From: an uncultured Trueperaceae bacterium
Lineage (GTDB): Bacteria; Deinococcota; Deinococci; Deinococcales; Trueperaceae
DNA length: 64,000 nt
Assembly (NCBI GenBank): GCA_937873495.1
Contig: CALMXZ010000015.1
Span: 62,001 to 126,000, forward strand
Reading direction: 5' to 3'
In this document: in pieces, positions 46,267 through 64,000 of the stretch
Layout: each line of letters opens with the position of its first letter
Numbering within the stretch: position 1 is the first letter of the stretch
Position numbers and translations under genes: made by a program
The notes under the pieces: generated by a model
Database searches by the model: none
What the model was told of the DNA's origin: nothing
Seen by the model: the letters and a program-made list of their open reading frames with translations, nothing else

Positions 46267-47541
46267 ATGGACGAGACCTCCACGGGTAGCCAACCGACCG
46301 GCGTCTTCGGCGTCGCCGTGCAGGAGTGGGCGGCGGTACGGCCACCCATCGCGTTCGTGCTCGGTGCCGCCGCGCTGGCCCTGATCGGGTACCTGAGCTT
46401 CGTCGTCGTCCAGCGTGTGCTCGACGGGGTCGTCCGCCGTTCCAACGCCCTGCGGCGCGCAGGCTGGACCGGGCCGCTGCAGGCGCGGCATGTCGCCGCG
46501 CGGCTGGCCTTCCTCGTTCCGCTTGCCCTTGTTGGCAACTGGCTGCCCTACGTGCCGGCCATACCTCAATGGTTGCTCCTGCTGCTCCAGCGGGGGCTGG
46601 CGGTCGTGGCGGTGCTGGCCGCGGCGCGGGCGCTCGAGGCGTTCCTGAACGCCATCGCCGACCGGCACGCCGCGCGCCAGAAGCCAGGCCAACGGCCGAT
46701 CAAAGGCTTCGTGCAGGTCTTGACGCTCGTTGCCTACCTGATGGCGGCCGTGGTCGTGATCGGGGTGGTCCTCAACCGCGACCCGCTCGTGCTCCTCACC
46801 GGTATCGGGGCGATGTCGGCCATCCTCATCCTCGTCTTCCAGAACACCATCCTGAGCTTCGTAGCCGGCATCCAACTCACGACGAACGACCTCATCCGGG
46901 TGGGCGACTGGATCGAGATGTCCGACATGGGCGCCGACGGCACGGTGACCGAGATAGCCCTCAACACCGTCATCGTGCAGAACAGCGACAAGAGCCTCAC
47001 GATCATCCCCGCGCAGAACTTCCTGAGCAAGTCGTTCAGGAACTGGCGTGGCATGCAGGAAGGTGGCGCGAGGCGCATGCAGCGGAGCCTCAGCCTCGAC
47101 CTGTCGAGCGTCCGCTTCCTTGGCGAGGACGAGCTCGAGCACCTCAACCGCTTCGCGCTCCTGCGGCAGTACCTGGCGGAGAAGAAGGCGGACATCGCGG
47201 AGTGGACGGCCCAGCACCCGGCGGCGCAGGAGGACGTGCTCAACTCCCGGCGCATGACGAACGTCGGCACCTTCCGCGCGTACGTGACGCGTTACCTCCG
47301 CGCGCACCCGAGCATCGTCCAGGACGCGACGCTCGTCGTGAGGCTCCTACCGCCGGGTCCGAACGGGCTGCCCCTCGAGGTCTACGTGTTCGTGAACGAC
47401 GTGCGGTGGGACGTGTTCGAGGGCGTGCAGTCCGACATCTTCGAACACCTGATCGCCATACTGCCCGAGTTCGGGTTGAGGCTGTTTCAGGCGCCTAGTG
47501 GGAGTGATATGCGGGCCGGGATGGAGGACGTAGGGGCCTGA
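46267..47541 (+). CDS. MscS-family mechanosensitive channel (YbdG-like)
   Basis: A 424-residue membrane protein. Five hydrophobic segments lie in residues 15-190. The MscS pore helix and beta domain follow: LLTGIGAMSAILILVFQNTI, then SFVAGIQLTTNDLIRVGDWI and GTVTEIALNTVIVQNSDKSL with the IPAQNFLSKSFRNW segment. The C-terminal 170 residues include VGTFRAYVTRYLRAHPSI and PLEVYVFVNDVRW, as in YbdG. Such channels release solutes during osmotic downshock. A TACTCT box lies nine bases before the ATG, so the leader is very short. Confidence 0.9.
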   Translation: MDETSTGSQPTGVFGVAVQEWAAVRPPIAFVLGAAALALIGYLSFVVVQRVLDGVVRRSNALRRAGWTGPLQARHVAARLAFLVPLALVGNWLPYVPAIPQWLLLLLQRGLAVVAVLAAARALEAFLNAIADRHAARQKPGQRPIKGFVQVLTLVAYLMAAVVVIGVVLNRDPLVLLTGIGAMSAILILVFQNTILSFVAGIQLTTNDLIRVGDWIEMSDMGADGTVTEIALNTVIVQNSDKSLTIIPAQNFLSKSFRNWRGMQEGGARRMQRSLSLDLSSVRFLGEDELEHLNRFALLRQYLAEKKADIAEWTAQHPAAQEDVLNSRRMTNVGTFRAYVTRYLRAHPSIVQDATLVVRLLPPGPNGLPLEVYVFVNDVRWDVFEGVQSDIFEHLIAILPEFGLRLFQAPSGSDMRAGMEDVGA

Positions 47542-59930: not shown

Positions 59931-60605
59931 CTAGTAAGAATCTCCGCCCGCGCCGGCACCCGTGACTATCGTGGTCCCGCCACTCGTACCGACGAGCTCC
60001 GCCCCCGCCGCCAAGAGCGCCACGACCTGCTCGTACGTGCGAATGCCGCCCGATGCCTTCACGTGCGTGGTCGGCTTGACGGTCTCGCGCAGGAAGCGGA
60101 TGTTCTCGGGCGAGGCGGCTTCCGAGCCGGGCCCGGCGCCGCTCGAGTTCTTGATCCACGGCACGCGTGCCTCCTCCAGGAGCCTCACGGCGAGCTGGCG
60201 CTCGGCGAGTTCCTTGAGGTAACCGAGCTCGAGCATGGCCTTGATAGGGCGACCTTCGGCCGCTTCGACGAGGAGTGCAGCTTCCCGCTTGAACTCGGCG
60301 TGCATGCCCGAGAGGAAGTAGCTCATGTTCGGCTCGAAGTCGACCTCGTTCGCCCCGAGCGCCCAGCACTCCCGCAGCAGCGCGACCTTGGCGTGCGCGC
60401 TCTCGTTGCCCATGGCAATGCTGAAGAACGTAGCCACGCTCACGCCCGTGCCTTCCAGGATGTCCTTCGCGAGCGGCACCCAGCACATGGGGATCATGGC
60501 GGCGTTGAAGCGGTACTCCCCGCAGACCTCGATGTGCTTCCTCACCTGATCGCGTGTGGTGCTGGCGAAGCGTTTAGTATGGTAGCGTTCGCGCGTGCAG
60601 TTCAA
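59931..60605 (-). CDS. deoC: deoxyribose-phosphate aldolase, N-terminus lost
   Basis: A 224-codon frame whose only extreme start is a weak TTG at 60605 without a ribosome site. Catalytic residues are all present: Asp89 (ANEVDFEPNM), Lys122 (PIKAMLELGYL), Schiff-base Lys152 (WIKNSSGAGPGSE) and Lys183 (HVKASGGIRT). The first strand of the barrel is missing: normal relatives have an Ile-Asp-His-Thr-Leu-Leu-Lys opening before the helix matched here from residue 11 (KRFASTTRDQVRKHI), and about 10-20 residues are gone. The break coincides with the start of the AT-rich OLD gene on the other strand, ten bases of which overlap this frame. Probably inactivated by that insertion. Confidence 0.75.
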   Translation of the reverse strand: MNCTRERYHTKRFASTTRDQVRKHIEVCGEYRFNAAMIPMCWVPLAKDILEGTGVSVATFFSIAMGNESAHAKVALLRECWALGANEVDFEPNMSYFLSGMHAEFKREAALLVEAAEGRPIKAMLELGYLKELAERQLAVRLLEEARVPWIKNSSGAGPGSEAASPENIRFLRETVKPTTHVKASGGIRTYEQVVALLAAGAELVGTSGGTTIVTGAGAGGDSY

Positions 60606-62358
60606 AGGAATAGACCTTTGCGGCTTTCGCAGTATCGGATCCGCGGGCGTGCAGCTCAGACCATGGAAAAAGACAAATCTTCTTATTGGTCAGAACAACG
60701 CAGGCAAGTCAAACGCTATCCGCGCCCTCATGATGGCGCTAAGTGTAACGCGACGGAAATATCTCTCGCTAAAGGAAGCTCCAGACAGGGATGTTTATCC
60801 ATCTAAAGCGAACGACAGCTACCGTCGACAGTTGTCTCAACCATTTGAGTTCACAATGTACTTTGAGGCTTCTAACGACCTTGAGCTAGTTCGACTTTCG
60901 GGTACTAAGGAGTTCTTCTTCAGATGGACGAGTATTGACTCTACCACTCAATTAGTCGACTCCACCTTCTCCCATCTTGCAAGCTACGAAGACTCTCTGC
61001 GGGACAGGCAGCAATTCGAGCGCCTAGGAAAACTACTGGTTGAGTTGGGTCATGGGCTCGGCTATGACTACATACGGAGAGCCGAAATGAACAATCTGTT
61101 GGGTTCAAGGGCAGATTTTGCGTTTCGGAAGTACTTCGCTCAGGGAGTTCCGGCTTACGCGCTTATCCCGGAGTTCCGAGAAATTAGGCCTGGCGATACT
61201 TACAAGTTTCAAGGTACAAACCTTGTCGCGGAGCTTGGCAAGTACCAGCACCCTCCTGCAGACAGCCCTGAGTTAAGACTTCGTTTTGATGCACTTGAAA
61301 AATTTCTAAAGGCTCTCCTCGGTTTGCCCAATTCCAGCTTAGAGGTGACGCACGATAATTCTCAAATAATGCTGAATAGTGACGGCCTCAGGCTGCCACT
61401 AGAGAACTATGGAACCGGGGTACACCAGCTGGTCATCCTGCTAACAGCGGTTCTCTCGCTCAATGAGAACACCATATGCTGTATAGAAGAGCCTGAGATT
61501 CACCTTCATCCTTACTTGCAGAAGTCTTTGATTCGCTTCCTCACGCAAGAGACCAAGCCCTCGTACTTGATCAGCTCGCATTCGCCGTCTTTCATTGGCA
61601 GCCATAGCAGCTTCGGTGGTGGCGCCCATTTAGCCCTGCAAATTCATCACCTAACAGTGAGCCATGAGGGAACGAGATCCACTGCCGTACTAACTGACAA
61701 TGACTCCTTAGAGGCGTTGTCGGACCTAGGAATTCGGGCTAGTGACCTCCTCCAATCGAATTGCGTCGTCTGGGTAGAAGGCCCAAGCGACCGGGTATAT
61801 CTAAAACACTGGCTCAAGCTTGTCAACCCGGATTTGCTAGAGGGCGTACATTATTCGATATTATTCTATGGGGGCCGCCTCCTATCACATCTAAGCATCG
61901 AACGCTCGCAACCCCCGGAACAGCTTATTCCTATACTGCGAATCAATCAATACTCTGTCCTGATCATGGACTCCGACCGTAGCAGCGATAGGGTAAGGCT
62001 TAGTCGGACAAAGCAGCGCATTATCTCTGAAGCCAGGAATAACAATGGAATCACGTGGGTAACTACTGGGAGGGAAATCGAAAATTACTTGCCGGAAGCC
62101 GTCCTGAATGAGTATCTGTGTGCTGTCGGTAGTGAGCCACTTAGAATACCTTTTGGCAAGTATGACCGACTTGAGGATGTGCTGGCTGGTTGTAGAGAGG
62201 TACATAACGGCAGGAGGCGAAAGATCGCATACCAGCAGAACAAGGTGGCCTATGCCAAGGACATTCTTGTGCACTTCGTGGATGACAGCTTTTCACGCGA
62301 CCTTCGTAAGAGGGTTCTCGGTGTATGTGCCTTTATACGGAGCGCAAATGGTGTTTAG
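60595..62358 (+). CDS. OLD-family nuclease (ABC-type ATPase plus TOPRIM)
   Basis: A 587-residue protein starting from GTG at 60595. Walker A is IGQNNAGKSNAI (32-39); the signature region reads NYGTGVHQLVILLTAVLSL; Walker B is ICCIEEPEIHLHP (about 295-307); SSHSPSFIGSH follows as the switch His region. The TOPRIM domain has VVWVEGPSDRVYLKHW (Glu about 394) and VLIMDSDRSSD (Asp pair about 457-459), the metal-binding residues for DNA cleavage. OLD proteins are ATP-dependent nucleases used against phage, alone or with a helicase. No helicase partner is adjacent, so it resembles the stand-alone class. Codons and base content are far more AT-rich than the rest of the window (42% G+C in two sampled 60-base lines), a sign of recent transfer. 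Confidence 0.88.
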   Translation: MQFKGIDLCGFRSIGSAGVQLRPWKKTNLLIGQNNAGKSNAIRALMMALSVTRRKYLSLKEAPDRDVYPSKANDSYRRQLSQPFEFTMYFEASNDLELVRLSGTKEFFFRWTSIDSTTQLVDSTFSHLASYEDSLRDRQQFERLGKLLVELGHGLGYDYIRRAEMNNLLGSRADFAFRKYFAQGVPAYALIPEFREIRPGDTYKFQGTNLVAELGKYQHPPADSPELRLRFDALEKFLKALLGLPNSSLEVTHDNSQIMLNSDGLRLPLENYGTGVHQLVILLTAVLSLNENTICCIEEPEIHLHPYLQKSLIRFLTQETKPSYLISSHSPSFIGSHSSFGGGAHLALQIHHLTVSHEGTRSTAVLTDNDSLEALSDLGIRASDLLQSNCVVWVEGPSDRVYLKHWLKLVNPDLLEGVHYSILFYGGRLLSHLSIERSQPPEQLIPILRINQYSVLIMDSDRSSDRVRLSRTKQRIISEARNNNGITWVTTGREIENYLPEAVLNEYLCAVGSEPLRIPFGKYDRLEDVLAGCREVHNGRRRKIAYQQNKVAYAKDILVHFVDDSFSRDLRKRVLGVCAFIRSANGV

Positions 62359-62740
62359 GGGAGGATTTGAGGCGGGGATCCCATTTCCTAGAAAGGTCCT
62401 CGAATACCTTCCCTCCACAAACTAGTACCATTCCCAGCCCGCATCCACATCCCGCGTTACCGAGCACCGTGAAGCCGAGCCAATTCTGGCTTATCTCTTG
62501 GAACATGCACCAGGACTTGATCAGTCCAGGATTGAGGTTGGGGGCGGCGCGGTCACGAAGAAAAACAAGGTAACGGATGATTCCGTCGTGGAGGTACTCC
62601 GGCCTCTCGCTATTGAAGGGCAGGAACGGGTTGACGAGTAGGGGCACGTCACAGGCAAGGCTGATATCGAACGCGCCGTGCTCCTCGAGCAGCTCGCGTG
62701 ATACACCGAAATGCTGCGAGAAGTACAGCTCAATGCTCAT
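62333..62740 (-). pseudogene. truncated partner gene of the type III restriction system
   Basis: A 135-codon frame whose ATG overlaps the Res stop (ATGA). The first 105 residues read as a real protein: MSIELYFSQHFGVSRELLEE, then HGAFDISLACDVPLLVNPFL, RPEYLHDGIIRYLVFLRDRA and QNWLGFTVLGNAGCGCGLGM. I recall longer proteins of about 350-400 residues with this start. Here the reading breaks down after the GLGM stretch (near 62430) and stops inside the 3' end of the OLD gene, 26 bases of which it overlaps. The gene was probably cut by the insertion. Function unknown. Confidence 0.65.
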
Positions 62741-64000
62741 CCGGCCAAAGCCCCCACGAGCTGAAGCAACGAGTCGTAGCTGTCGACGACGTCGTACTTA
62801 ACGCTGCCGTGCTCAGCTTTGTCGCTGAGGGATGCGAAGAACCTACGTGCACACTCGATCTTGGCTTCCTCCACTCCCTTGAGCTGGAGCGTAGACATAG
62901 AGCCCTTGGTTTCGGCGACGAAGTAGACGTGCTTCACGGCGCCCTCCCGGAATGCGATGGCCCAGTCAGGGTTGTAGTCGCCTACAGGGGTCGGGATGAA
63001 GAATCCGCGCGGCAGCTTCGAGTAGACGACGACCTCGTCACTGACGTCCAACTTCTCAACGAACGACCGCTCGACCTTTGAGTCGGTGACCACGTATTCG
63101 TAGACGCTCTTCTTCAGCTTCTCGCCCGCCTTCGAGAGGTCCTGGGCGGTCTGATTCTCGGTGAAGATCGAGGAGTCGTAGCGGCGGTCAAGCGGGTCGT
63201 AAGTGAGGTGCTCGACAATGACCGTCGCCTTCTGCTCGTTGATGATCCGGGCGGCCTCCGTAATGAACTGTTCTGGGTTCTGCTTGAATTTCGCGAAGGT
63301 GCTCGGATGGATGCATGTCAGGATCGCCGCGCAGGTCCGGCGGGTGAGCTGAGTCTTCTCCGCGATCTCCCCGAGGAGGTCGTACTTGACGGTTGACCCC
63401 GCCGAGACTGCCGAGTGGGCCACCCTCGTCTCGGCGATTTTGAAGCCGGTGCCGGCCTCGAGCTGCTCGACTTCAAGCCCTACTACCTGCTTGCCGCTTT
63501 CGACGAGGTACTGCATGACGGTTACATTCAGCGACGTGTCCAGCGCTCGAACGCAGTTTCTGATCAGCTCGGCGGAATCGAACTCGACCTGGTAGACGGC
63601 CTTGTGGTTTATGCGGCCCCACAGTTCCTGAAACTCGCGTTTCTTGAAGTTCGCCTCATTGAACGGGATCCGCTTCGGCTTGCGCCCGTCGGCTGGGGTC
63701 GGTACGGCAAGGTAGAGCGCGTCCACTAGAGGCCATACGAAGTCGATGATCGGCTTCAGAGCCTCGGCCGTGGGCGTGGCAAGATTTCCGTCGGCGCGGG
63801 CATCCTTGTACACCTGAGTCACCATGCCGTCGTCGTCGATGTAGTTGTTGCGGACTAAATGGTTGTACAAGGCCTGTGCGACGGGCTTCTCCAATGCCTT
63901 CGTCGACCCGTCTTCGAGCGTGATGCGTTTGTTGACGAAGTAGTCGACGCTGGCCTTGCGCGGCCTAGCCGACAGCGACTCCACGATCTCCTTCTGGAGC
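62737..64000 (-). CDS. type III restriction endonuclease Res subunit, C-terminal part
   Basis: At least 420 residues; the gene continues beyond the right edge (LQKEIVESL precedes the first in-window GTG, so that GTG is not the true start). The visible part lacks the helicase motifs and covers the C-terminal half. The nuclease site is VGDYNPDWAIAFREG and HVYFVAETKGSMSTLQLKG, a PD-x(n)-E-x-K core, followed by EAKIECARRFFASLSDK and KYDVVDSYDSLLQLV, as in EcoP1/EcoP15-type Res subunits. It cuts DNA after ATP-driven sliding when the Mod subunit finds an unmethylated site. Mod is expected upstream, outside the window. Confidence 0.88.
   Translation of the reverse strand, partial: LQKEIVESLSARPRKASVDYFVNKRITLEDGSTKALEKPVAQALYNHLVRNNYIDDDGMVTQVYKDARADGNLATPTAEALKPIIDFVWPLVDALYLAVPTPADGRKPKRIPFNEANFKKREFQELWGRINHKAVYQVEFDSAELIRNCVRALDTSLNVTVMQYLVESGKQVVGLEVEQLEAGTGFKIAETRVAHSAVSAGSTVKYDLLGEIAEKTQLTRRTCAAILTCIHPSTFAKFKQNPEQFITEAARIINEQKATVIVEHLTYDPLDRRYDSSIFTENQTAQDLSKAGEKLKKSVYEYVVTDSKVERSFVEKLDVSDEVVVYSKLPRGFFIPTPVGDYNPDWAIAFREGAVKHVYFVAETKGSMSTLQLKGVEEAKIECARRFFASLSDKAEHGSVKYDVVDSYDSLLQLVGALAG

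What the first reader, a model, noticed from the sequence alone, without database searches (positions are those of the whole stretch)
60545..62430. AT-rich OLD nuclease gene spliced between two broken genes
The OLD gene is about 42% G+C in sampled lines against 62% in a neighbour. Its start overlaps the point where deoC loses its N-terminus, and its end overlaps the point where the restriction-linked gene loses its C-terminus. No transposase, repeat or attachment site is present, so the gene may have arrived as a single-gene cargo by an unclear route.
Basis: partly seen in the sequence, partly recalled or inferred. Interest (0 to 1): 0.7.

Follow-up and report, generated by a model that had tools for sequence, protein, structure and literature searches.

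The report
Lone OLD nuclease in defence island
A complete, AT-richer, single-gene OLD-type nuclease, probably an anti-phage gene, sits between two genuinely broken accessory genes at the edge of a restriction island; this is ordinary turnover of defence genes, although how the gene got there is not recorded in the sequence.

Summary
An intact 587-aa ABC-ATPase/Toprim (OLD family) gene lies at 60595-62358 (+), 49.7% G+C against 64% to the left and 60% to the right. Homology places the borders at about 60581 and 62431. deoC loses only about 8 N-terminal residues, at the conserved 'IDHT' motif. The partner gene keeps about 103 of about 490 residues. The foreign segment is 1,850 bp: 12 bp, the OLD gene, and 73 bp. 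It has no transposase, significant repeat, tRNA, integron integrase or attC.

The interpretation needs changing. Both broken genes are accessory DNA. OLD, the deoC block and a type III restriction island all lie in a 38-kb plasticity zone that is absent from a congener (G005), where backbone 47501 joins 85408 with 32 bp between. A second congener (G004) has the same restriction island but no OLD gene, and its partner gene is broken there too, elsewhere, beside a Mutator-transposase fragment and a different AAA-ATPase. So single-gene cargo is only one reading; stepwise gain and deletion at a defence-island edge fits at least as well. OLD is a new member of a known kind (class 1-like, lone gene).

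The parts
60595..62358 (+). OLD-family (ABC ATPase + Toprim) lone gene, 587 aa, GTG start
   Evidence: AAA_15/AAA_21 above Pfam cut-off; Walker A GQNNAGKS 32-39, Walker B IEEPE, H-loop SH, Toprim E395, D459, D461; key residues invariant among 8 homologues
60582..62431 (.). segment (1,850 bp, 49.8% G+C) homologous to neither neighbour: 12 bp leader + OLD + 73 bp tail
   Evidence: borders from protein alignments; each border uncertain by about 1-2 codons
59931..60605 (-). deoxyribose-phosphate aldolase (deoC) ORF; native sequence 59931-60581, the first 8 codons (60582-60605) read into the OLD segment
62432..62740 (-). 5' remnant (about 103 of about 490 codons) of a PDC-M36A-like candidate defence gene that follows res
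   Evidence: full-length homologue matches PADLOC PDC-M36A. The ORF runs on to 62333 in unrelated sequence
62737..64000 (-). type III restriction enzyme (res), continues beyond the window to L022:10030
   Evidence: (REase_III E 6.6e-98)
62350..62429 (+). imperfect hairpin from the OLD stop to the right border; a possible transcript end, not statistically unusual
   Evidence: z = -1.4 and -1.1

Best explanation
The gene is a lone (class 1-like) OLD-family nuclease, acquired horizontally as the outermost gene of a restriction/defence island inside a 38-kb plasticity zone. Shown by sequence: it is complete, carries all ATPase and Toprim motifs, has low G+C, is absent from the other 110 genomes of the phylum searched, and is bounded by a deoC that lost its first residues and by a partner gene that lost its last four-fifths. 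Inferred: the borders arose by illegitimate (repeat-free) recombination with loss of the DNA that once lay between, in one replacement or in two steps (OLD joined to the decaying end of the restriction island, and that end joined to the deoC block). Inferred from the family: the ATPase domain senses an invasion cue and licenses the Toprim domain to cut DNA with two metal ions, protecting the cell or aborting infection. Whether it is expressed is open, because only 12 bp of its own leader came with it and no promoter-like site is seen upstream.
For: Key residues invariant in 8 homologues. A profile of these finds GajA, T. scotoductus OLD 6p74, AriA and Retron-Eco8 OLD in the PDB. Homologues are lone genes of about 1.76 kb next to unrelated genes, several of them on plasmids, one in a viral-collection contig, and are mostly AT-richer than their surroundings. 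OLD occurs only in this genome within the phylum. Borders. The restriction island beside it is shared at 87-88% nt with G004 in a different context. G005 has the empty site: window 47501 followed by 85408 with 32 bp between. No partner 3' remnant is left in G000.
Against: No relative with an intact border pair was found, so the order of events is inferred. The Pfam OLD-like_TOPRIM hit is below its cut-off (16.1 vs 23.2 bits), so Toprim rests on motifs and on the profile search. The AlphaFold model was too poor to use (mean pLDDT 37.9). Defence function is not tested, and some OLD proteins are not defensive (PMC12796447). Chimeric assembly cannot be excluded without reads.
Confidence: 0.72

Rival explanations
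1. Single-gene cargo: one event replaced the deoC 5' region and the partner 3' region with the OLD gene alone, by an unknown gene-precise process.
For: The foreign segment is almost exactly one gene (12 bp + ORF + 73 bp), and its composition differs from both flanks. Homologues are lone genes in unrelated neighbourhoods.
Against: Two different broken genes need deletion as well as insertion. The partner gene also breaks in G004 without OLD. No repeat, att site or recombinase. The 6-bp inverted match ATGGTA/TACCAT at the borders is reached by 8% of random pairs.
Confidence: 0.17
2. Integron-like gene cassette: short 5' leader, one gene, short 3' tail with a hairpin.
For: The anatomy (12 bp + gene + 73 bp with an imperfect palindrome) resembles a cassette.
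Against: Palindrome ends run GTTT...AAAC, opposite to the RYYYAAC...GTTRRRY of attC. The hairpin is ordinary for its composition (z -1.4). No integron integrase reaches its cut-off in the genome; the family's weak hits look like generic tyrosine recombinases and the model also rings below cut-off in all 14 controls.
Confidence: 0.02
3. Chimeric assembly: the low-G+C segment belongs to another organism and was misjoined.
For: Abrupt composition change at two repeat-free borders.
Against: Two misjoins within 2 kb of a 176-kb contig would be needed. The defence-gene content fits the neighbouring restriction island. Low relative G+C is usual for this family in other hosts, including finished plasmids.
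Confidence: 0.06

Closest known systems
Class 1 OLD nucleases (P2 Old, Thermus scotoductus OLD 6p74, E. coli YbjD)
   Same: N-terminal ABC ATPase plus C-terminal Toprim encoded by one lone gene; detected by profile; also a weak DUF2813 hit at the N-terminus
   Different: Only about 31-36% identical to its own nearest family and remote from P2 Old and TsOLD; sits beside a restriction island, whereas PMC10568477 describes class 1 genes as not close to other defence genes; activity untested
Gabija GajA (class 2 OLD)
   Same: Same domain order; GajA models and structures are among the best profile matches
   Different: No GajB/UvrD helicase next to it or next to the homologues examined
PARIS AriA/AriAB
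   Same: ATPase domain matches AriA models
   Different: ATPase and Toprim are in one chain and there is no separate AriB; the match covers only the ATPase part
Type III restriction islands with SNF2 helicase, DUF4391 and PDC-M36A-like gene
   Same: The neighbour to the right is such an island
   Different: OLD is not part of the shared island: absent from the G004 copy

Membership tests
Class 1 OLD nuclease | N-terminal ABC-type ATPase with Walker A, Walker B and H-loop | tested here: met
   Pfam AAA_15 84.8 bits and AAA_21 65.8 bits over cut-off; key residues invariant in 8 homologues
Class 1 OLD nuclease | C-terminal Toprim with acidic motif (E ... DxD) | tested here: met
   E395 in WVEGPSD and D459/D461 in DSD invariant; the Pfam OLD-like_TOPRIM hit itself is below cut-off
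Class 1 OLD nuclease | Single gene, no helicase or reverse transcriptase partner | tested here: met
   Neighbours are deoC and the partner/res genes; homologues L046-L049 have no UvrD or RT annotated beside them
Class 1 OLD nuclease | DNA cleavage and ATPase activity | not testable with these tools
   needs purified protein
[quoted passage not shown]
PARIS | Separate AriB Toprim gene, or AriAB fusion | tested here: not met
   No AriB gene adjacent; AriA models match only the ATPase half. An AriAB-like fusion is not formally excluded, but AriAB is not among the best matches of the window protein
Retron-associated OLD (class 3) | Reverse transcriptase and ncRNA next to the OLD gene | tested here: not met
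   no RT ORF next to it; no Rfam match in 60000-63000
Integron cassette | attC with RYYYAAC...GTTRRRY ends and an IntI integrase | tested here: not met
   palindrome in the wrong sense; no integrase over the TIGR02249 cut-off

The most novel reading that the evidence does not exclude
The OLD gene was moved as a gene-precise unit (12 bp upstream, 73 bp downstream) by a recombination route with no transposase, attachment site or repeats, showing that lone defence genes can be trafficked singly into defence islands.
Probability: 0.06. Interest if true: 0.55.

Novelty: new member of a known kind. Interest (0 to 1): 0.27.

Why it matters
It adds a remote, lone OLD gene to a class whose anti-phage role is still poorly tested, and it places it beside a restriction island, where class 1 genes are said not to occur. 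The two sharp borders, together with the G004 and G005 comparisons, show that the tail of one restriction island breaks and is followed by unrelated ATPase genes in more than one species. It does not by itself demonstrate a new mobility mechanism.

Tried and rejected
Integron cassette: rejected. Border repeats: a 6-bp inverted match is at chance level (8%), and no longer repeat coincides with the borders. tRNA site: none. Inversion restoring deoC: reversing the segment does not restore the deoC reading frame (own reading of the sequence). Recent donor by DNA: no nucleotide match in plasmids or phages. Left-over partner 3' end elsewhere in the genome: none. Structure prediction: unusable with 5 sequences, so no fold search was run. 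Eight viral contigs matched 18-25 residues around the right border; the short stretch looks like chance and was not pursued.

Full report
What is there. The window is G000:C15:62001-126000 of a 3.4-Mb genome in 17 contigs. The ORF at 60595-62358 (+) encodes 587 aa. It matches AAA_15 and AAA_21 above Pfam cut-offs and, weakly, OLD-like_TOPRIM, and it matches AriA, GajA and Old models in PADLOC. Aligned with seven full-length homologues (31-34% identity), the key residues of Walker A (GQNNAGKS), Walker B (IEEPE), the H-loop, and Toprim E395 (WVEGPSD) and D459/D461 (DSD) are intact and invariant. The N-terminus lines up with the starts of the homologues, so the gene is complete. A profile of the family finds GajA, T. 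scotoductus OLD, AriA and Retron-Eco8 OLD among solved structures.

The borders. deoC passes TIGR00126 (131.5 bits, cut-off 117.3) and aligns from model position 8. In the alignment with 17 relatives its homology begins at H-T of the conserved 'IDHT' motif, window 60581. Eight codons read from the OLD segment precede it, so the truncation is real but short; from general knowledge of DERA enzymes the lost Asp of this motif is an active-site residue, so activity is doubtful. On the right, the gene after res matches 480-496 aa homologues on plasmids over its first 103 codons and then stops matching at about 62432. No other part of that gene is found in the genome. The segment between the borders is 1,850 bp at 49.8% G+C. 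deoC is 66%, the partner fragment 57% and res 60%. Low relative G+C is usual for this gene family in other hosts, so it shows foreign origin more than it dates the arrival.

How it got there. The two broken genes are different genes and neither is host core. The same-genus genome G005 joins window position 47501 to 85408 with 32 bp between them, so the transporter/DUF3604/deoC block, OLD and the restriction island all lie in a roughly 38-kb variable zone; base composition within it steps from 63-66% to 50% to 57-60%. The same-genus genome G004 has the restriction island at 87-88% nt identity in another context. It lacks OLD, and its partner gene is also broken: an internal stop, and loss of homology at residue about 69-73, followed by a Mutator-family transposase fragment (PF00872, E 2.7e-4, just below the family's cut-off) and a HEC-04-like AAA ATPase. 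The tail of this island therefore breaks in more than one lineage. Stepwise loss and gain at a defence-island edge explains the window at least as well as a single-gene cargo. No border repeat above chance, tRNA, integron integrase or attC was found, and no DNA-level donor in plasmids or phages.

Function. Lone OLD genes are called class 1 (PMC10568477), and a recent E. coli example gives anti-phage phenotypes that need the ATPase (PMC13261556, abstract). By homology the best guess is ATP-regulated DNA cleavage during phage infection. This is inferred, not shown. Only 12 bp of leader came with the gene and no promoter-like match was seen upstream on its strand, so it may be silent or use a fortuitous promoter in the deoC antisense strand.

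Verdict. The anatomy was read correctly. The thing is an ordinary kind of object (a horizontally acquired lone OLD gene in a defence island) with unusually clean borders. New member of a known kind, modest interest.

Noticed in passing
L022:12678-12699 (mod gene L022:12597-14366, about 4.7 kb past the window end); L026:9035-9076 in G004: The type III methyltransferase gene carries a (GA)11 tract near its 3' end that leaves the conserved C-terminal stretch (VADDALIACFS...) out of frame; the related gene in G004 has (GA)21 at the same place and is out of frame too. This looks like a phase-variable type III mod.
   Followed up: partly
L022:9942-10451 vs L026:11333-12985: The AlbA_2/RecG-like gene of the restriction island is 550 aa in G004 but 169 aa here, consistent with an internal deletion: the island is decaying.
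   Followed up: partly
window 47515 to about 85400 (window coordinates continued through L022/L023): A roughly 38-kb variable zone between an MscS-like gene and the DUF853-like/polA genes; empty in G005, different content in G003.
   Followed up: yes
L022:18563-19408: A further 281-aa gene of unknown kind beyond the helicase, outside the part shared with G004; the accessory zone continues past the restriction genes.
   Followed up: no
L026:16990-18642 (G004): HEC-04-like AAA ATPase next to the broken partner gene in G004, the counterpart position of OLD here.
   Followed up: partly
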